This document shows, one piece after another, positions 39,607-47,257 of a stretch of 64,000 nucleotides of DNA. Under the pieces are notes generated by a model. That model made no database searches and was not told the origin of the DNA. It saw only the letters and a list, made by a program, of their open reading frames with translations. The DNA lies in NCBI GenBank assembly GCA_023653055.1, contig JAMNXR010000003.1:124001-188000 (forward strand), given 5' to 3'. This DNA comes from Burkholderiaceae bacterium (lineage in GTDB: Bacteria; Pseudomonadota; Gammaproteobacteria; Burkholderiales; Burkholderiaceae_B). The translations under genes were made by a program, and so were the position numbers. Within the stretch, counting starts at the first letter, position 1. Every line of letters begins with the position of its first letter.

Positions 39607-40362
39607 ATGAGTCTGCCCCTGTCCGGTAAAGTTGCCCTAGTCACTGGAGCCGCACGCGGCATTGGTCGTGCATGTGCCTTGAAATTGGCCTCTGCCGGTT
39701 GCGATATTGTCGCCAACTACTACAACAGCTCTGATGAAGCAGAGGCTGTATGTGCCGAAGTCCGCGCCATGGGCAGACGTGCGATTGCCGTCCAGGCCAG
39801 TGTTGGCGTACCAGACAGCGTGGCCGAAATGTTTGAGGTCATCACCAAAGAGTTTGGTCATCTCGATATCGTTATCAGCAACGCCGCCTCGGGCGTTCTC
39901 AAGCCGGCGATGGATATGACGCTCAAGCACTTCCGCTGGTGCCTCGAGACCAATGCCTTCGCAGTGAATTTGTTGGCGCAGCACGCTGCTCCCTTGATGA
40001 AAAATGGCGGTCGTATCGTGGCAATGTCCAGCCTCGGCGCGCAGCGAGCAATGCCCCATTACGGATTTATTGGTGCGTCCAAGGCCGCTCTCGAGTCGCT
40101 CGTGCGGTCGCTGGCCCAGGAACTCGGTCCACGCGGGATTCGCGTCAATACGGTCTCTGCTGGTGTGGTCGACACCGATGCCTTGAGTCACTTTCCCAAC
40201 CGGGATCAGGTGTTGGCTGAATTCGCTGCGCGTACCCCAGTCGGCCCAAGCCTGTTACCTGCTAACGTAGCGGATGCGGTGTATCTGCTGTGCTTGCCAG
40301 AGGCCGCGTGGGTCAACGGTCACACCTTGGTTGTAGACGGCGGTTTCGCCATTTCGGGTTAA
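39607..40362 (+). CDS. FabL-type enoyl-ACP reductase-like SDR
   Basis: The 251-residue short-chain dehydrogenase/reductase has the NAD(P) motif TGAARGIG (13-20) and SNAAS instead of NNAG. The catalytic Tyr and Lys are six residues apart: Tyr152-x6-Lys159 in HYGFIGASK, not the Tyr-x3-Lys of ordinary SDRs. Tyr-x6-Lys is the mark of enoyl-ACP reductases, and the surroundings (SSLGAQRAMP, AALESLVRSLAQELGPRGIRV, VSAGVVDTDAL) resemble Bacillus FabL. It would reduce the enoyl-ACP double bond, giving saturated chains. It is first of a seven-gene operon and five bases before a FabG-like gene. Enoyl reductase function is inferred. Confidence 0.82.
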   Translation: MSLPLSGKVALVTGAARGIGRACALKLASAGCDIVANYYNSSDEAEAVCAEVRAMGRRAIAVQASVGVPDSVAEMFEVITKEFGHLDIVISNAASGVLKPAMDMTLKHFRWCLETNAFAVNLLAQHAAPLMKNGGRIVAMSSLGAQRAMPHYGFIGASKAALESLVRSLAQELGPRGIRVNTVSAGVVDTDALSHFPNRDQVLAEFAARTPVGPSLLPANVADAVYLLCLPEAAWVNGHTLVVDGGFAISG

Positions 40363-40367
40363 AAATT

Positions 40368-41126
40368 ATGACGTTCAAATCTGGTTTAGCTGGCAAAGTG
40401 GCCATCGTGACAGGTGGTTCTCGCGGGATTGGTCGTGCGATTGTTGAAACGCTCGCAGGCGAGGGCGTCAATGTGACCTTTTTTTATAAAGGCAACCAAA
40501 CTGCTGCTGAAGAGGTGGTTGCAGCGGTGACCGCCGCAGGCGGGCAGGCAACTGCCATGCAAGTCGATGTCAGTGATGCGGCAGCCTGCGCGGCGGCGGT
40601 TGAGTCTATCGGTGAGCGTTGCGAACGCATTGATATCCTGATCAATAATGCGGGTATTGTGCGCGATAACTTGATGGCCGCCATGGAGGATGAGGAGATC
40701 TCGTCCGTACTCAACACCAATGTCGGTGGCGTTTTTAACGTTGCCCGGCCGGTGATCCCTTATATGATGTCCCAGCGTGCAGGCCGAATCGTCAATCTGT
40801 CCTCGGTCGCCGGGGCCAAAGCCGGTCGCGGTCAGGCTAATTATGCCGCGAGCAAGGGCGCCGTTGATGCACTCACCCGGGCCATGGCTGTTGAGCTGGC
40901 GCCGCGCAAGATTTTGGTCAATGCGGTCGCCCCGGGTGTCATTGAGACTGAAATGTCTCAACAAGTCCGTGATTTGGCTGCAGACGAGGTAAAGGGCAAC
41001 ATTCTGTTAAAACGGTATGGTGCAGCCCAAGATGTTGCGAATGCAGTAGCATTCTTAGTGTCAGACATGGCTGGATACGTCACCGGACAGATCCTTTACG
41101 TCGATGGCGGCTTTAAAATGGGCTGA
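40368..41126 (+). CDS. FabG-type 3-oxoacyl-ACP reductase
   Basis: The 252-residue SDR has TGGSRGIG (cofactor), NNAGIVRDNLM, the Ser of LSSVAG and Tyr-x3-Lys in NYAASK, then PGVIETEM and the C-terminal GQILYVDGGFKMG; these are FabG features. It would reduce the 3-ketoacyl-ACP made by the ketosynthase with NADPH. The start at 40368 is five bases after the preceding stop; a longer in-frame reading would sit inside the FabL-like gene. A separate housekeeping fabG is expected elsewhere, making this a pathway-specific copy. A 96-base gap separates it from the carrier protein. Confidence 0.9.
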   Translation: MTFKSGLAGKVAIVTGGSRGIGRAIVETLAGEGVNVTFFYKGNQTAAEEVVAAVTAAGGQATAMQVDVSDAAACAAAVESIGERCERIDILINNAGIVRDNLMAAMEDEEISSVLNTNVGGVFNVARPVIPYMMSQRAGRIVNLSSVAGAKAGRGQANYAASKGAVDALTRAMAVELAPRKILVNAVAPGVIETEMSQQVRDLAADEVKGNILLKRYGAAQDVANAVAFLVSDMAGYVTGQILYVDGGFKMG

Positions 41127-41222
41127 AACAGGGGACATCGTGCCTGACTCAGCAGTTTCACGAGGCGGGATTTCCCTATAGTTGGGTTAAAATAGCGCGC
41201 GTTGACATATACGGAGTAAATC

Positions 41223-41651
41223 ATGGCTGAAGCAGTCATCTCTAAAGAAGAAATCATGGCAGTCTTCCCGACTGTCCAAAAAACGATGGCCGATGCATTG
41301 GGCTGTGATGTGGATGACATCAAGTTAGACGTCTCTCTGATCGAGGGTCTGGACGCTGAGTCAATCGACTTTTTGGATATGGTGTTCCGCCTTGAGCGCG
41401 CCTTTAAAATCAAGGTCCCGCGTGGCAAGATTATCGAAGACGTGCGCGGCGATATGCCTGTGGCCGAATTCGAAGAAAACGGCGTCCTGACCGAAAAAGG
41501 TTTGGCGCGTTTGCGTGAGTACTTGTCCGAAATCGACGCCTCACGCTTCAAAACGCCTATGCGTGTTGATCACATTGCGCGTCTTTACACACCTGAAACG
41601 TTCTGCAAGCTCGTGGTCCGCGCACAGCGTGAGTCACAAGCCGCTGGCTGA
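41223..41651 (+). CDS. Acyl carrier protein with extended C-terminus
   Basis: The 142-residue protein has an acyl-carrier fold in its first 90 residues. The phosphopantetheine site is Ser47 in GLDAESIDFLDMVFRLE, with the expected acidic residue before and Ile after it. The length is unusual: ordinary FAS ACPs have about 80 residues. The extra part (about 91-142) reads GLARLREYLSEIDASRF then YTPETFCKLVVRAQ, helical and mildly basic, and may be a docking segment. CGGAG precedes the ATG. It is followed one base later by the dehydratase gene. TTGACA and TAAAAT hexamers occur in the upstream gap but are not spaced as a promoter. Confidence 0.87.
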   Translation: MAEAVISKEEIMAVFPTVQKTMADALGCDVDDIKLDVSLIEGLDAESIDFLDMVFRLERAFKIKVPRGKIIEDVRGDMPVAEFEENGVLTEKGLARLREYLSEIDASRFKTPMRVDHIARLYTPETFCKLVVRAQRESQAAG

Positions 41652-41652
41652 T

Positions 41653-42573
41653 ATGGCTGTCTCAATGGCGCAGGCCTCTGAGGCCTCGCCAGATGGTGCT
41701 GTGGGTGTTGAAGGTGGCCCTGGTGGCTTAGGTTGTCGCTTCGCGGCGTTTTCATTCGTCGATCGCATCACCCAAATCGAAGGGACGTCCCGAGTATGCG
41801 GTTTCTATACGATCCCAGCAGAAGTCTCTCATTTCCCTGTGAGCCTAGTCGCTGAAGCAATCGGTCAGCTCGCGGCCTGGGTGGCGATGTCGGTCGTGGG
41901 TTTTACACACCGTCCTGTTGCGGCACTCGCGGGCGATACTCGGATGCATCGCCCGCCCAGAGCGGGAGACACACTTGAGTTGATTGTCGACATTGAGTCG
42001 TGCGATGCCGAGTCGATCCAATATCGTGGTCGTGCTTTGGTTGACGGCCAACTCATTTTAGAGCTGAGTGATACCTTGGGCTCTATGCTCGACATTCTCG
42101 AGTTTGACGAACCGAACGCCTTGCGCGCAGATTTTGCATTATTGACCTCAACAGGCCGCGCGCCCGGTGCCTTCAAAGGTGTACCGATGCCCGTGCTTCA
42201 CGACCTCGTAGGAGAGGGTAGTCAGCGACTCGAGGTGAATTTATTCGTGCCCTCTGAGGCCGCATTTTTCTTAGACCACTTTCCACGACGGCCGGTTTTT
42301 CCTGCGACATTGATGCTGGATGCGCAACTGCAACTCGCTCAGCGTCTGGCCGAAACATTGGCAGGTGGTGCTGTACGTGTTCAGCGCATCACAAACGTCA
42401 AGGTGCGTGCATTTACCGCTCCTGGCGCAACGCTGATGTTGTTTGCCGAGGCTGCCGAGCCTGGCCAAACAGACGTTGAACCTATTTTGATTAAAGTCGG
42501 CGCTCAGGCTGAGGGCCGCACGATTGCAGGTGCCAAGATGTTTTTTGTCCCTGACTCCGGAGAAACCGCATGA
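41653..42573 (+). CDS. Two-hotdog 3-hydroxyacyl-ACP dehydratase (FabA/FabZ-like)
   Basis: The 306-residue protein reads as two hotdog units. Unit 1 (about 30-150) has AEVSHFPVSLVAEAIGQLAAW: His60-Phe-Pro runs straight into the Glu-containing helix, with the usual PxxPG loop missing. Unit 2 (about 190-300) has FFLDHFPRRPVFPATLMLDAQ, with His209 in the full HFPxxPVxP motif of FabZ, but Asp rather than Glu in the helix. It would dehydrate 3-hydroxyacyl-ACP. Active sites could be formed between the halves, as in DH tandem proteins. The start is one base after the ACP stop; the end overlaps the ketosynthase start as ATGA. Confidence 0.82.
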   Translation: MAVSMAQASEASPDGAVGVEGGPGGLGCRFAAFSFVDRITQIEGTSRVCGFYTIPAEVSHFPVSLVAEAIGQLAAWVAMSVVGFTHRPVAALAGDTRMHRPPRAGDTLELIVDIESCDAESIQYRGRALVDGQLILELSDTLGSMLDILEFDEPNALRADFALLTSTGRAPGAFKGVPMPVLHDLVGEGSQRLEVNLFVPSEAAFFLDHFPRRPVFPATLMLDAQLQLAQRLAETLAGGAVRVQRITNVKVRAFTAPGATLMLFAEAAEPGQTDVEPILIKVGAQAEGRTIAGAKMFFVPDSGETA

Positions 42574-43883
42574 CCGCAAGACGTCGCGTAGCGATTACTG
42601 GCATTGGACTTGTCACACCCGCAGGCTTGGACGTGGCCTCCACTTGGGCACGCATCAAAGCTGCCAAGGGATGTGCAGGTCCTATTACGATTTTTGACGC
42701 TTCTGGTTTTTCTACGCGTATCGCGGCCGAGGTCAAAGGCTTTGACGACCTGCCTCCTCTGGATGATCGCAAGCTGCTCAAATACGCCAGCCGTGCACAT
42801 CGTTTCGCCATTGGCGCAGCAGACCAAGCCATCGCAGACGCAGGGATTCGACCCACGCAACAAGACGCTGCACGCTGGGGTTGTGTGGTGGGCGCTGGCA
42901 TGATGACGGTCGCGCACGACGAAATCGCGGCCATTCAACAAGCTGCTGCACCCCAAGGTGAGTTCGAGCCTTCTGCTATTTTGGCTGAGCCGGTTGCTAG
43001 CGATGTCATGGCTTTTAGCCGCAGCTTGTCTACAGCGGGCGTTTCGTTGCTGCTGCGTCGTTTCGGAATCCGCGGCTATGCGTCGACTGTCCACACTGCG
43101 TGTGCGTCAGGTGGTCAAGCCATCGGCACGGCGTTGCGTTTGATTCGTCGCGGTGTTGCGGATCGCGTGCTGACCGGCGGATTCGATTCCATGATTTCAC
43201 CGGTCGGTTTGTCAGGCTTTTGTTTGCTTTCTGCCGTTTCGCCTGACAATGACGCACCAGACCGCGCCAGCCGTCCGTTCGATTTGACGCGTAACGGTTT
43301 TGTCTTGGGTGAGGGGGCGGGTTTCCTTGTCCTCGAAGAGTGGAACAGTGCGGTTCAGCGTGGCGCTACCATTTATGCTGAGTTGGCGGGTGATGGTAAT
43401 TCACTGTCGTCGTACCGAATTACCGACTCGCATCCCTCGGGCGATGGTCCGATTCAGGCGATGCGCCGTGCGATTTACGATGCCGGTGGGACGGAAAGCG
43501 ATATCAATTATTTAAATGCGCATGGCACTTCTACGCCGATGAATGACCGCAGCGAGTGTGCAGCTGTCCATGCTGTCTTTGGTGAACGTGCGATGGAGGT
43601 GGGCGTGAGCTCCACCAAGAGCGTCACAGGCCACCTCATTGCCGCTGCCGGAGCCGTTGAGGCTGGATTTTGCGCCTTGGCGATTCGTGATGGTTTGATG
43701 CCTCCGAGTGCCAATCTGCGTGAACTTGACCCCGATTGTGCTGTGGATATCGTACGCGATGTGCCACGTCCAGCCCGTATCGGCATGGCGCTCTCCAATT
43801 CCCTTGGTTTTGGCGGTAGCAATAGTTGTTTGGCTTTCAGGCACCCCGAAGAAACCGCGGCGTTGATCGCTGCAGGACGGTAA
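42570..43883 (+). CDS. Beta-ketoacyl-ACP synthase (FabF-like, catalytically intact)
   Basis: The 437-residue condensing enzyme has the full triad: Cys178 in HTACASG, His318 in NAHGTSTPMND and His355 in STKSVTGHLIAAAG, plus Lys350. The N-terminus VAITGIGLVTPAG and GEGAGFLVLEEW are standard for FabB/FabF. It condenses malonyl-ACP with a growing acyl chain. The next gene encodes a second ketosynthase lacking the Cys, so the two may form a KS-alpha/KS-beta heterodimer as in type II polyketide and aryl polyene systems. Translation is coupled to the dehydratase by ATGA. Confidence 0.93.
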   Translation: MTARRRVAITGIGLVTPAGLDVASTWARIKAAKGCAGPITIFDASGFSTRIAAEVKGFDDLPPLDDRKLLKYASRAHRFAIGAADQAIADAGIRPTQQDAARWGCVVGAGMMTVAHDEIAAIQQAAAPQGEFEPSAILAEPVASDVMAFSRSLSTAGVSLLLRRFGIRGYASTVHTACASGGQAIGTALRLIRRGVADRVLTGGFDSMISPVGLSGFCLLSAVSPDNDAPDRASRPFDLTRNGFVLGEGAGFLVLEEWNSAVQRGATIYAELAGDGNSLSSYRITDSHPSGDGPIQAMRRAIYDAGGTESDINYLNAHGTSTPMNDRSECAAVHAVFGERAMEVGVSSTKSVTGHLIAAAGAVEAGFCALAIRDGLMPPSANLRELDPDCAVDIVRDVPRPARIGMALSNSLGFGGSNSCLAFRHPEETAALIAAGR

Positions 43884-43888
43884 TAGTT

Positions 43889-45166
43889 ATGACCCGTATT
43901 GTGATCACTGGTAATAGTGCGATTTGTGGCGCAGGCCAAGACCCCACCAGCATCATCGACACCTTGCTCCAAGGTCAGTCGGCACTTGCGCCTATTGCTG
44001 CATGGGACGCTGAAAAGTGGAACGGCAGTTTGGCGGCCGAGGTCAAGGATTACAACGGCGGCAAGCTGTTGGGCGATCGTAAATTGCTCAAATTAGTTCG
44101 CCGTTCAGATGTCTTTGGCATCTATACGGGGACACAGGCAATCGAGCAAGCAGGCCTGCCTGCCTGGCGCGAATCATTGGATGAAAAAATAGCCAATGAT
44201 TATGCAGACCAGACAGGTTGCTATGTGGGCTCAGGGGGTGGAGCCTTTGAGGTCAACTATGACTACTTCCCCTTGATGGCCGAAACAGGCGGTAGCCTAG
44301 CCAAGTTCGGCCAGGAATTGTCCAGCATGGTCAATCCAATGTGGCTGCTGCGTTCCTTGCCGAACAACGTACTCTGTCATGTCAGTATTCGTAATCAGCT
44401 CAAAGGCCCTAACGGCTGCATCACCAATCACACGACGAGTGGGATATTGTCGGTCATTGAAAGTGCCTGGGCCTTGCGTGAAGGCGATGCACAGCGTGTG
44501 GTGGCGATTGGTCATGATGCACCGATCGAGCCACAAACTTTGCTCTATCTGGACAAAGTTGGCCTGATTTCCAAGGACTTGCTGCGTCCTTACGACGTAC
44601 AACACAATGGCTGTTTGCTCGGAGAGGGCGCTGCTTCGCTTGTGCTAGAGACAGAGGCTTCTGCGCAAGAGCGCGGCGCCACCATCTTGGGTGAATACCT
44701 CGGGGGCGGCGATGCTTCAGAGGGTGAGGGCATCTTTGATGTACGAGCAGATGGTGACGGCCTGAGCCGTGCGATTGAATGCGCTCTGTCTGACGCAGGC
44801 CTCAAACCTGCAGATGTTGGCATGATTGTGGCCCACGCAAATGGGACCCAAGCTTCTGATTGTTCTGAGGCGGCAGCTTTGTTGCGTGTATTTGGCAATG
44901 ACATGCCCCCCGTCACTGGATTCAAATGGTCGATCGGTCATCTTTTTGCAGCCTCTGGTGCAATCGATGTTTCGCTGGGATTGGAAGCATGCCGCAGGAA
45001 TGTTGTGCCTGGTATTGCAAGCCTTGAACAGCTTGCACCTGGATGTGCTGGTCTCAATGTGAGCCGGGAAAATCGCCCTGCACGTAGCGATATCGTCTTG
45101 GTATTGTGCCGAGGCTTTGCCGGCACCAATGCGGCAGTCCTGTTACGCGCTACGCGCGAGCGTTGA
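43889..45166 (+). CDS. Ketosynthase-like chain-length-factor-type protein without catalytic Cys
   Basis: The 425-residue thiolase-fold protein begins MTRIVITGNSAICGAGQDP and aligns along its length with the preceding ketosynthase. The nucleophile motif reads TNHTTSG, placing Thr182 where the partner has Cys178. The first His is also moved: HANGT (His316, Asn318) instead of NAHGT. The second His survives in KWSIGH (His351). It therefore cannot run a normal condensation and resembles a KS-beta/chain-length factor. The start at 43889 is five bases after the previous stop; a longer version would overlap it. The end lies next to the PPTase-acyltransferase fusion. Confidence 0.88.
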   Translation: MTRIVITGNSAICGAGQDPTSIIDTLLQGQSALAPIAAWDAEKWNGSLAAEVKDYNGGKLLGDRKLLKLVRRSDVFGIYTGTQAIEQAGLPAWRESLDEKIANDYADQTGCYVGSGGGAFEVNYDYFPLMAETGGSLAKFGQELSSMVNPMWLLRSLPNNVLCHVSIRNQLKGPNGCITNHTTSGILSVIESAWALREGDAQRVVAIGHDAPIEPQTLLYLDKVGLISKDLLRPYDVQHNGCLLGEGAASLVLETEASAQERGATILGEYLGGGDASEGEGIFDVRADGDGLSRAIECALSDAGLKPADVGMIVAHANGTQASDCSEAAALLRVFGNDMPPVTGFKWSIGHLFAASGAIDVSLGLEACRRNVVPGIASLEQLAPGCAGLNVSRENRPARSDIVLVLCRGFAGTNAAVLLRATRER

Positions 45167-45171
45167 ATGGC

Positions 45172-46446
45172 GTGACGCAACCAAACGCACCGCAAAATGC
45201 ACCACAGAACGCACAGCCGAACGCTTCGTTCGAAGGTGCGTCATTACCAGACGGTTGTGCAGTCGATACCGTTGAAATTATGCGTGTGGCGCGCTTGCTT
45301 GAAGCGATGCCTGGCGAACTCGACAAGCTTTTTTCTTTGCGCGAAATCGAGGATGCGGGGGAGGGGCCAGGACGCACTGCCAGTCTTGCCGCACGGTTCG
45401 CCGCCAAAGAGGCCTGCCTCAAATTATTTCCGCGCGAAACTGCACTAAACATCATCACAGCGATGGATTTTTCTGTTGTAAAAGACGAATACGGTGCGCC
45501 TCATATTGCAGTCACACCTGCCGCTGAAATCGTGATGGGTCGTCACTTAGTTCAGACAATCAAAATTTCGCTGACCCATAGTGAAACAACCGCGACCGCA
45601 GTGGCCCTTAGGATTCAACGCAATATCAAGCCCTCTTGGGGTGGACGATTTATTTTCCGCTGGTTGCCTTATCGCCGTGCAGTCATTTTAGAAAATCTCA
45701 ATCGTGTATATTGCGCAAATGTTGCGCCCTCGCAGGTTGCTTTACTCGCCCAGGCGCACTACAGCCATTTACTCTCACTACTCAAAGAACTGATTCAGTT
45801 CCGTTTTTTGTCTGAGGCACGTAAAAAATCAATCGTGAGGGTCGAGGGCGTCGATGGCATGATCCAAGCGTTCGAGGCGGGCAAGGGGATTTTGATTCTG
45901 ACAGGTCACTTTGGAAATTTCGAGGTGTCCACGGTCGCCGGGATTGAGCATTTCCCCCAGGTCAAAGGGCGGATCCATTTTTTGAGACGTCCGATCAAAC
46001 CGAAGTGGTTGAGCGACTTACTGACCCGGCGCTTTAATCAAGCAGGTTTCGGTGTAGTAGGTCGGCGGGGCTCTCTCGAAGAAATCGTCTCAACGATCGA
46101 GTCAGGTGATGCGATTGTGTTCCCCTTTGATCAGTACGCACGTCGTCCAGAGGGCATTGAGGTCGAGTTTTTTGGTCAGGCAGCGGGTACGTATAAAAGT
46201 ATGGCCATTATTGCCTTGGCGACGGGTGCACCGGTGATTCCTGCTGCCTCTTGGCGAGAGCCCGATGGTACGCATGTGCTCAAATTCTTTCCTGCGCTTG
46301 CTCCTGTGCTGGATGATGACGTGGGTCAGGAAATTATAAAAAATACCCGCGTGTATAACCAGGCGCTTGAACTTTCGATTGTTCGTCATCCAGAGCAATG
46401 GTGGTGGGTCCATCGTCGCTGGAAAAATCAAAAGCCCCGCAAGTAG
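45172..46446 (+). CDS. Fusion: AcpS-type phosphopantetheinyl transferase + LpxL/HtrB-like acyltransferase
   Basis: One uninterrupted frame carries two enzymes. Residues about 28-150 match holo-ACP synthase: GCAVDTVEIMRV, AARFAAKEACLKLF and KISLTHSETTATAVAL, the three AcpS motifs. Residues about 155-424 match the LpxL/HtrB lipid acyltransferases, with catalytic LTGHFGNFE (His246, Glu251), VFPFDQYA, and the C-terminal HPEQWWWVHRRWK. Before the PPTase is a short Asn-Ala-Pro-Gln repeat. No ATG lies near; GTG 45172 is chosen, with TTG 45163 (overlapping the previous stop as TTGA) as the alternative. It would activate the operon's ACP and hand its acyl chain to an acceptor at the membrane. Confidence 0.88.
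   Translation: MTQPNAPQNAPQNAQPNASFEGASLPDGCAVDTVEIMRVARLLEAMPGELDKLFSLREIEDAGEGPGRTASLAARFAAKEACLKLFPRETALNIITAMDFSVVKDEYGAPHIAVTPAAEIVMGRHLVQTIKISLTHSETTATAVALRIQRNIKPSWGGRFIFRWLPYRRAVILENLNRVYCANVAPSQVALLAQAHYSHLLSLLKELIQFRFLSEARKKSIVRVEGVDGMIQAFEAGKGILILTGHFGNFEVSTVAGIEHFPQVKGRIHFLRRPIKPKWLSDLLTRRFNQAGFGVVGRRGSLEEIVSTIESGDAIVFPFDQYARRPEGIEVEFFGQAAGTYKSMAIIALATGAPVIPAASWREPDGTHVLKFFPALAPVLDDDVGQEIIKNTRVYNQALELSIVRHPEQWWWVHRRWKNQKPRK
45184..45225 (+). repeat. 12-bp-period repeat encoding Asn-Ala-Pro-Gln
   Basis: Three and a half imperfect 12-base units (AACGCACCGCAA, AATGCACCACAG, AACGCACAGCCG, AACGCT) encode NAPQ-NAPQ-NAQP-NA just after the presumed start of the fusion gene. It is a flexible linker and may vary in length between strains. 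Confidence 0.75.
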
Positions 46447-46478: not shown

Positions 46479-46709
46479 TTACTGACCTTGCTCGTGCTTG
46501 TTATACACATAGCCACCCAGCGTACCTATTGCCGCGCCACCGATCGCGCCCCAGATAGGGTTGCCATGCGCGAGTGCCGTAATGCCTGCGCCTGCTGCTG
46601 CACCAATCGCACCGCCCGAGAGTAAGCGTTGTTGCTCGGTATTCATGTTTGAACAGCCTGTCAAAGTGAGGGCTGCAACAAGAGGAAGAGCCAATAGAAT
46701 TTTTTTCAT
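46479..46709 (-). CDS. Small glycine-zipper lipoprotein
   Basis: The 76-residue product has a lipoprotein signal, MKKILLALPLVAALTLTGC, with lipobox LTGC (Cys19), and then SGGAIGAAAGAGITALAHGNPIWGAIGGAAIGTLGGYVYN, a classic glycine zipper of two helices, as in OmpA-like/osmotic-inducible lipoproteins. CCAGGAG precedes the ATG at 46709; an upstream in-frame ATG gives no signal. It is probably anchored in the outer membrane. Function not established. Confidence 0.85.
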   Translation of the reverse strand: MKKILLALPLVAALTLTGCSNMNTEQQRLLSGGAIGAAAGAGITALAHGNPIWGAIGGAAIGTLGGYVYNKHEQGQ

Positions 46710-46769
46710 GGTAGTACTCCTGGAATACTTGAATTCAAAAGAGATCAGTTTCAAATATTGAAATAGACT

Positions 46770-47141
46770 TTATTTTTTGCAAGGCAATGTCTCTGCTAGG
46801 AAGCGCAGGATCGTGTCAGCGGCAGACATTTGATTGAACTTAGGATTGGAGGCCGACCATTTCACGAAGCCATCAATGTAATCCTGTCGTGTATTTTTGG
46901 AGTTTTCAGCGCAAATAAAAGCAGGCGCTCTTTTGGGGTGACGCGTGATCAGGTAAGTTTCAAACACACCTTGACCAAAACCATGACAGAAGTTTTGCGC
47001 GGCCACATCCGTTTTCTGGTTGCACATCGCCACATAATCTTGGGTAGATGTGAAGGACGATTTAGGTGCTTGTGCGATCGCTGTGTTTGCTGCGCTCAAC
47101 AACAACACACAGGCTCCTGCTGCGGCAAATTTAAATTTCAT
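46770..47141 (-). CDS. Rap1a/Tai-like exported protein (possible orphan immunity protein)
   Basis: The 123-residue product has a signal peptide (MKFKFAAAGACVLLLSAANTAIA) and CAGGAGAC upstream of the ATG at 47141. The mature part shows Cys spacing like the Rap1a/Tai family of periplasmic amidase-immunity proteins: an early Cys in YVAMCNQ, NFCHGFGQGVFETYL, a central APAFICAEN, a DYIDGFVKWSASNPKFNQMSAADTI helix and a final LAETLPC. No toxin or type VI secretion gene is in the window, so an immunity role is only suggested by family resemblance. It lies between two glycine-zipper lipoproteins. Confidence 0.65.
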   Translation of the reverse strand: MKFKFAAAGACVLLLSAANTAIAQAPKSSFTSTQDYVAMCNQKTDVAAQNFCHGFGQGVFETYLITRHPKRAPAFICAENSKNTRQDYIDGFVKWSASNPKFNQMSAADTILRFLAETLPCKK

Positions 47142-47257
47142 TTCAGTCTCCTGATAGTGGATGAGGAAAGCGCATTTCGAGAGCAGGAAAAGTGGTAAGT
47201 AACACCCGCTTAGCGTTACAATTCGATAACGGCTTTTAACAAAGCTTAACAAATTTA

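What the first reader, a model, noticed from the sequence alone, without database searches (positions are those of the whole stretch)
39607..46446. Self-contained seven-gene acyl-chain (type II FAS/PKS-like) operon with its own ER, KR, ACP, DH, KS, CLF, PPTase and acyltransferase
Genes run on one strand with mostly 5-base or smaller gaps, apart from 96 bases before the ACP. Every step is present in one copy: chain extension (ketosynthase pair), ketoreduction, dehydration, enoyl reduction, carrier, carrier activation, and an LpxL-like transferase. The enoyl reductase separates it from aryl polyene clusters, which leave double bonds; no ammonia-lyase or AMP ligase is present. A fully reduced special acyl chain passed to a lipid, glycolipid or protein is the simplest reading. 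The product is unknown to me and this is my best candidate for an undescribed system.
Basis: partly seen in the sequence, partly recalled or inferred. Interest (0 to 1): 0.88.

Follow-up and report, generated by a model that had tools for sequence, protein, structure and literature searches.

The report
Private acyl-chain operon, probably lipid A
A freshwater bacterium carries a private set of fatty-acid-making genes, shared with some distant bacteria and with a shorter relative in Legionella-like genomes, which probably builds an unusually long fatty chain and attaches it to the outer-membrane lipid A.

Summary
The operon is real: seven + strand genes at 39607-46446 (ER, KR, ACP, DH, KS, CLF, and a PPTase fused to an LpxL-like acyltransferase), catalytic residues as expected. 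It is not housekeeping: plsX-fabH-fabD-fabG-acpP-fabF lie on another contig. All seven genes in this order occur in 58 of 80 fetched relatives (15 of the other 22 are cut by contig ends): Zwartia, Jezberella, Sheuella, other Burkholderiales, Verrucomicrobiota, one Methylomirabilota. A shorter form (ACP-DH-KS-CLF-LpxL, usually with ER nearby) occurs in Dot/Icm-bearing genomes; its CLF is in 89 of 93 genomes of one such family, inferred to be Legionellaceae, none with AcpXL over cut-off. [quoted passage not shown] An LpxO-like lipid A hydroxylase lies by the transferase in six loci. Best reading: a dedicated type II FAS making a very-long-chain (or otherwise special) saturated chain that LpxL moves to lipid A. 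It works like rhizobial acpXL-lpxXL but is not that family: ACP, reductase, KS pair and transferase fail its tests. Chain length and acceptor in Zwartia are inferred. New variant of a known kind; it predicts unusual lipid A in three phyla and offers candidate genes for Legionella.

The parts
39607..40362 (+). FabL-type enoyl-ACP reductase (SDR, Y-x6-K active site), 251 aa
   Evidence: NF005975 337.6 bits vs cut-off 328; best solved relative 3oic, enoyl-ACP reductase [NADPH], E 1.2e-62, next molecule 1.6e-40; Tyr and Lys of Y-x6-K in 60 of 61 aligned rows, 1 gap
40368..41126 (+). FabG-type 3-oxoacyl-ACP reductase, 252 aa
   Evidence: NF009466 238.3 bits vs cut-off 222; TIGR01830 263.9, below its cut-off 297.75; Ser, Tyr and Lys (Y-x3-K) in 66 of 66 rows
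41223..41651 (+). special acyl carrier protein, 142 aa, with a conserved C-terminal extension of about 65 residues
   Evidence: PF00550; Ser47 in 65 of 65 rows; extension with invariant T-F-x-K in the 22 aligned homologues
41653..42573 (+). double-hotdog-type 3-hydroxyacyl-ACP dehydratase, 306 aa
   Evidence: PF07977 matches the second half; the first-half hotdog is inferred from a weak FabZ match and the alignment; His209 73 of 73; Glu68 invariant in the 23-row alignment A4
42570..43883 (+). ketosynthase (condensing subunit), 437 aa
   Evidence: NF005589 407.3 bits vs 387; Cys 77 of 78 (1 gap), both His 78 of 78; one clade, 100/99
43889..45166 (+). chain-length-factor-like ketosynthase partner, 425 aa
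   Evidence: first catalytic His replaced by Asn in 78 of 81 rows (2 Asp, 1 gap); Cys position T 32, C 23, S 21, A 5; own clade, 99/99
45172..46446 (+). fusion: AcpS-type phosphopantetheinyl transferase + LpxL/LpxM-type acyltransferase, 424 aa
   Evidence: PF01648 27.3 bits (cut-off 25) and PF03279 113 bits (cut-off 22.3); HX4E in 74 of 76 rows, 2 gaps; the two are separate genes in L043
46429..46457 (.). 12-pair hairpin at the operon end, scored as terminator on the - strand only
   Evidence: terminator-like sites in the region are not more numerous than in shuffles

Best explanation
The operon is a self-standing type II fatty acid synthase for one special acyl chain of lipid A. The fused PPTase arms the operon's own ACP (inferred). 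The KS-CLF pair extends the chain with malonyl units supplied by the housekeeping FabD (inferred). KR, double-hotdog DH and FabL-type ER reduce each unit fully (from family and intact active sites). The CLF-like subunit sets a length beyond that of the housekeeping system, most likely a very long chain of about C26-C30, as in Legionella and rhizobia (inferred from homology, distribution and architecture). The LpxL-type domain moves the finished chain from its ACP to a hydroxyl of a lipid A primary acyl chain (inferred). Lipid A then leaves by the normal MsbA/Lpt route (recalled), which would explain why the operon has no exporter.
For: All parts and catalytic residues present. Housekeeping FAS is separate in the same genome. 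The transfer domain is a Lip_A_acyltrans with HX4E, additional to two other such genes. Gene order conserved in 58 of 80 loci, three phyla. A homologue of lipid A hydroxylase LpxO lies directly after the transferase in five loci and 1.1 kb after it in a sixth; the one copy scored has 438 bits, under the cut-off of 500. Homologous clusters occur in 6 of 7 class genomes tested that carry DotI/IcmL; the CLF is in 89 of 93 genomes of the family of G240; 0 of 93 have AcpXL over cut-off, 85 have a weaker hit, and the one whose place I checked (G240) lies in the operon's own ACP. [quoted passage not shown] L. pneumophila gene numbers fit: ACP lpg0359, ketosynthases lpg0361 and lpg0362 (PMC13200437, passages). 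Same logic as rhizobial acpXL-lpxXL.
Against: No chemistry of Zwartia lipid A was found. The published fatty acid table of Z. vadi, Z. panacis and Z. hollandica lists nothing above C18, though the method is not made for such chains (PMC10535154, passages; method range recalled). The Legionella-like clusters differ: KR in 1 of 6 loci (L038), no PPTase between CLF and LpxL in 4 of 6, no ER seen in L042 or L043, DH only 25-29% identical. The name Legionellaceae is inferred. In other loci an upstream gene set (condensation-like acyltransferase, methyltransferase, lipoprotein) could mean another acceptor. KS and CLF score higher against FabF than against the rhizobial proteins. The named LpxL models are not reached.
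Confidence: 0.58

Rival explanations
1. The same synthase makes a special saturated chain, but the transferase puts it on another acceptor (phospholipid, aminolipid, glycolipid or a secreted ester) rather than lipid A.
For: The transferase forms its own clade, apart from the other PF03279 copies and rhizobial LpxXL; 14-18 loci have upstream genes for a condensation-like acyltransferase, membrane methyltransferase and lipoprotein; Z. vadi has unidentified amino- and phospholipids (PMC10535154, passages).
Against: LpxO-like gene by the transferase in six loci; Legionella-like relatives and their known lipid A acids; no exporter in the window operon.
Confidence: 0.2
2. The operon makes a medium-length special chain for lipid A, for example the iso-C14:0 reported at 1.9, 2.1 and 5.7% in three Zwartia species that carry it, not a very long chain.
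For: In the printed table iso-C14:0 is the only branched acid named on its own at 1% or more in Z. vadi and Z. panacis; Z. panacis also has a mixed feature at 3.2% that may be branched (PMC10535154, passages). Both genomes hold the operon.
Against: No species without the operon was compared; the operon has no starter enzyme for branched primers; Legionella-like relatives point to C28-C30 products.
Confidence: 0.13
3. A back-up or stress copy of ordinary fatty acid synthesis.
For: Among the proteins compared the KS profile scores FabF highest (406.8 and 416.3 bits).
Against: Own ACP with unique extension, CLF, double-hotdog DH and fused transferase; complete housekeeping cluster elsewhere.
Confidence: 0.05
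4. An aryl-polyene-like or polyketide product.
For: KS-CLF pairing and acyltransferase are shared with the aryl polyene cluster.
Against: Enoyl reductase in all 58 complete loci; no acyl-CoA synthetase, MMPL, LolA or second ACP as in the E. coli cluster; KS and DH profiles score the APE proteins low.
Confidence: 0.04

Closest known systems
Rhizobial acpXL-fabZXL-fabF2XL-fabF1XL-(adhXL)-lpxXL cluster (27-hydroxyoctacosanoic acid of lipid A)
   Same: Special ACP, DH, active KS plus inactive KS partner, reductase and LpxL-type transferase, adjacent and co-directional; two of the five AcpXL loci fetched here also hold a KR
   Different: FabL-type SDR instead of medium-chain alcohol dehydrogenase; double-hotdog DH; ACP below AcpXL cut-off; KS, CLF and transferase in separate clades; PPTase fused to the transferase
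Cluster of Dot/Icm-bearing, Legionella-like genomes (ACP-DH-KS-CLF-LpxL with ER nearby; perhaps lpg0359-lpg0363 of L. pneumophila, not sequence-tested, the ends recalled)
   Same: Homologous ER (58-64%), KS (52-57%), CLF (40-44%), LpxL (43-44%) and ACP (42-55%); same order from ACP on
   Different: KR only in L038; no PPTase between CLF and LpxL in L038, L039, L040, L042, separate gene in L043, L041 ends there; ER not seen in L042 and L043; DH only 25-29% identical
Aryl polyene cluster of E. coli CFT073
   Same: KS, CLF, KR, DH, ACP and acyltransferase genes together
   Different: No enoyl reductase annotated; has acyl-CoA synthetase, MMPL, LolA, glycosyltransferase, second ACP
FabL of Bacillus (solved as 3oic; organism recalled)
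   Same: Family model and Y-x6-K met
   Different: Here part of a dedicated operon with its own ACP

Membership tests
Rhizobial acpXL-lpxXL cluster | ACP of the AcpXL family (NF005079 over 83 bits) | tested here: not met
   35.7 bits; 0 of 93 Legionella-like genomes over cut-off
Rhizobial acpXL-lpxXL cluster | KS pair in the FabF1XL and FabF2XL clades | tested here: not met
   operon KS and CLF form separate clades, 100/99 and 99/99 (four loci of each XL type)
Rhizobial acpXL-lpxXL cluster | transferase in the LpxXL clade | tested here: not met
   separate clade, 100/99 (four LpxXL rows)
Rhizobial acpXL-lpxXL cluster | alcohol-dehydrogenase-type reductase | tested here: not met
   SDR FabL type instead; Bradyrhizobium ORS278 also lacks adhXL (PMC5613085, passages)
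Rhizobial acpXL-lpxXL cluster | very-long-chain acid on lipid A | not testable with these tools
   needs mass spectrometry
Aryl polyene cluster | no enoyl reductase; exporters and acyl-CoA synthetase present | tested here: not met
Housekeeping FAS II | genome's main fabF/fabG/acpP set | tested here: not met
   main set on C22 with plsX, fabH, fabD
FabL enoyl-ACP reductase | NF005975 over cut-off and Y-x6-K | tested here: met
   337.6 vs 328 bits; 60 of 61 rows, 1 gap
KS-CLF pair | active Cys-His-His KS beside a KS lacking the catalytic set | tested here: met
   Cys position of the CLF is still Cys in 23 of 81; dimer formation not tested
Lip_A_acyltrans (LpxL/LpxM superfamily) | PF03279 over cut-off with HX4D/E motif | tested here: met
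   113 bits vs 22.3; 74 of 76 rows, 2 gaps
LpxL proper (lipid A acceptor) | named LpxL/HtrB models over their cut-offs | tested here: not met
   best NF006270, 108.7 bits vs 248

The most novel reading that the evidence does not exclude
This is a second, independently assembled very-long-chain acyl system for lipid A, spread over Pseudomonadota, Verrucomicrobiota and Methylomirabilota, and its Legionella-type branch is the source of the C28-C30 lipid A acids of Legionella, for which my searches showed no named genes. Because it has no starter enzyme, its KS-CLF may begin from acetoacetyl or 3-hydroxybutyryl units, leaving the oxo or hydroxy group at the (omega-1) carbon that these acids carry (my inference, untested).
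Probability: 0.4. Interest if true: 0.78.

Novelty: new variant of a known kind. Interest (0 to 1): 0.62.

Why it matters
It predicts membrane-spanning or otherwise special lipid A chains in freshwater beta-proteobacteria and in Verrucomicrobiota, where I saw none described in the listings and passages read. It offers candidate genes for an old chemical observation, the very-long-chain acids of Legionella reported in 1992 (reference seen). It shows two clusters of separate make-up with the same design: private ACP, KS with inactive partner, private reductase and private LpxL-type transferase. It also gives a cultured genus (Zwartia) in which to test this.

Tried and rejected
Rejected: housekeeping FAS (a second full set exists); aryl polyene (comparison); membership in the rhizobial XL family; plasmid spread (no plasmid record matches at E 1e-40); foreign base composition (operon 55.0% GC; equal-sized stretches across the window, operon included, 48.7-55.7%). 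Promoter- and terminator-like sites were no more numerous than in shuffles. My early guess that the ACP is specially close to AcpXL did not hold: with the operon ACP profile AcpXL scores 43.0-55.0 bits and ordinary AcpP 43.3-46.7. The iso-C14:0 link has no negative control. Broader searches were mostly negative: 1 of 299 phylum genomes, the own one, and 1 of 194 genomes in the phylum of a verrucomicrobial centre, the centre itself; only the first few candidates per genome are scored, so these and the counts are lower bounds. Tree limits: long branches (APE rows, some XL and PF03279 rows) are unsure; the join of operon KS with FabF is weak (86/64), and the PF03279 gene of the Methylomirabilota genome (L143) sits beside the operon transferases (95/89). 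Script limits: my PPT profile contains whole fused proteins and my KR profile contains ER rows from loci without KR, so labels rest on the best score.

Literature: ten searches of an open-access library; in the listings and passages seen, no paper describes this seven-gene operon or names the Legionella genes for its very-long-chain acids. [quoted passage not shown] I did not see that source, so a Legionella link may already be in print.
Full report
What is there. The window (G000:C7:124001-188000) holds seven + strand genes at 39607-46446: ER 39607-40362, KR 40368-41126, ACP 41223-41651, DH 41653-42573, KS 42570-43883, CLF 43889-45166 and a PPTase-LpxL fusion 45172-46446, with gaps of 5, 96, 1, -4, 5 and 5 bases. 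Family models agree. The ER passes the FabL equivalog cut-off (337.6 vs 328 bits) and its best solved relative is 3oic, an enoyl-ACP reductase. There are eight activities in seven genes, and no FabH or FabD.

Active sites. Rows come from the 80 fetched loci plus the window, where a gene scored high enough. ER Tyr and Lys of Y-x6-K: 60 of 61 (1 gap). KR Ser, Tyr and Lys: 66 of 66. ACP Ser: 65 of 65. KS Cys: 77 of 78 (1 gap), both His 78 of 78. DH His: 73 of 73. LpxL His and Glu: 74 of 76 (2 gaps). The CLF has Asn for the first catalytic His in 78 of 81 (2 Asp, 1 gap), and Thr 32, Cys 23, Ser 21, Ala 5 at the Cys position. So one ketosynthase is intact and its partner lacks at least the first His. 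The DH looks like a double hotdog, with the His in the second half and an invariant Glu68 in the first.

Not housekeeping. Contig C22 holds plsX, fabH, fabD, fabG, acpP and fabF in a row (L020; names from the sequences as I read them, fabG and fabF also by match to the operon). The genome has two other Lip_A_acyltrans genes, in open frames of 315 and 302 aa, so the operon's copy is an addition. Of 20 operon-bearing genomes searched, 19 have at least two PF03279 genes; G850 has one.

Distribution. In the same family 12 of 200 genomes have the CLF, in 2 of 43 genera, 10 of them in the own genus (own genome included), where one more genome has none. In the class 8 of 369 have it, own included; in a phylum sample only the own genome of 299. 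A scan of one genome collection with two CLF patterns gave 242 stretches, 230 of them relatives; the best 80 were fetched. Titles name Zwartia vadi, Z. panacis, Z. hollandica, Jezberella montanilacus, a Sheuella MAG, other Alcaligenaceae and Burkholderiales, Verrucomicrobiota and one Methylomirabilota. In 58 of 80 all seven genes lie in the same order; of the other 22, 15 are cut by contig ends, 3 are lone CLFs and 4 lack called ER, alone or with KR and/or ACP. KS, CLF and transferase of the operon each form one clade. A sample of the phylum of a verrucomicrobial centre gave only that centre among 194. The system is patchy but coherent.

Neighbours. In the Zwartia group the operon stands beside unrelated genes. 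In L077, L078, L079, L080 and L097 an LpxO-like gene follows the transferase directly (overlapping as called in L080), in L101 about 1.1 kb on; only the L078 copy was scored, 438.3 bits against a cut-off of 500. Upstream of the ER in L078 lie genes with homologues in many other loci: an ICMT/PEMT-type methyltransferase (14 other loci), a protein without family that looks secreted by eye (18), a condensation-like acyltransferase (17; family match in L103 and L101, below Pfam's cut-off) and a likely lipoprotein (18). These argue for an envelope lipid, the LpxO-like gene for lipid A in particular.

The Legionella link. Six of the seven non-own class genomes with the CLF carry DotI/IcmL of the Dot/Icm system; G214 does not. 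Three of the six belong to one family, f44. In 93 genomes of that family the CLF is found in 89, in 32 of 33 genera; two of the four misses are 0.5-Mb genomes. None of the 93 has an AcpXL over the curated cut-off; weaker hits occur in 85, and in G240, the one place I checked, the hit lies inside the operon's ACP gene. Gene content varies: ER is present in L038-L041, KR only in L038, PPTase as a separate gene only in L043. A review says that L. [quoted passage not shown] Another paper lists ACP lpg0359 among three ACPs and lpg0361 and lpg0362 as FabB, with no special role in the passages seen (PMC13200437); the numbering fits ACP-(DH)-KS-CLF, but I did not test those sequences. Thus a homologous cluster is near-universal where very-long-chain lipid A seems near-universal and the rhizobial ACP is absent. 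This is correlation, not proof.

Comparison with the rhizobial cluster. The rhizobial set is acpXL, fabZXL, fabF2XL, fabF1XL, adhXL, lpxXL (PMC11901934, passages). AcpXL over cut-off was found in 13 of 150 phylum genomes; five loci, unnamed and presumably alpha-proteobacterial, were fetched. They show the same design: ACP, DH and a KS pair in all five, an LpxL-type gene in four, a KR in two, and an inactive second KS in the four aligned. But operon KS and CLF score FabF higher than the XL proteins, the ACP profile scores AcpXL and AcpP alike, the trees separate them, and ACP, reductase and transferase fail the family tests. It works like that system; it is not a member of it.

Mechanism, shown and inferred. 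Shown: gene content, order, residues, separate housekeeping set, distribution. Inferred: PPTase arms the operon's ACP; malonyl units come from FabD; the KS-CLF pair builds a long saturated chain; the LpxL domain moves it to lipid A. Chain length in Zwartia is inferred from Legionella-like homologues. The published Zwartia table lists acids up to C18 and iso-C14:0 at 1.9, 2.1 and 5.7% (PMC10535154, passages), which neither shows nor excludes a very long chain; the iso acid is the basis of a rival.

Verdict. It is a new variant of a known kind: a dedicated acyl-chain synthase and transferase, most likely for very-long-chain lipid A, built from different parts than the rhizobial one.

Noticed in passing
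L061:10001-12267 and L069:9953-12266 (also L113): A lone CLF copy with no other operon gene beside it; in L061 and L069 a fatty acid desaturase-type gene follows (PF00487 scored in L061 only). L061/L054, L069/L055 and L113/L074 come from the same MAGs, the partners holding the operon. A spare chain-length factor plus desaturase may tune the product.
   Followed up: partly
L078:1425-5642, L103:2225-4596, L116:1619-5751: Conserved upstream genes: ICMT/PEMT-like membrane methyltransferase, a protein without family that looks secreted, condensation-like acyltransferase, likely lipoprotein with a weak alpha/beta hydrolase match.
   Followed up: partly
L021:5001-16821 (G000:C26): Own genome also has a fatty-acyl-AMP-ligase-type PKS (2489 aa) followed by an NRPS and preceded by a phenylalanine-4-monooxygenase-like gene: a separate lipopeptide-type cluster.
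   Followed up: partly
window 46479-47252 (-): Downstream of the operon: a glycine-zipper-like protein (below Pfam's cut-offs) and a protein with the Rap1a immunity domain, both on the - strand.
   Followed up: no
L026:7182-8449 (G089): The CLF gene of this one-contig genome is interrupted, and no ACP was called in its operon.
   Followed up: no
L052, L056, L073, L074, L089: Record titles (Bordetella parapertussis, Methylopumilus) sit oddly with CLFs 80% like Zwartia's; probably mislabelled MAGs.
   Followed up: no
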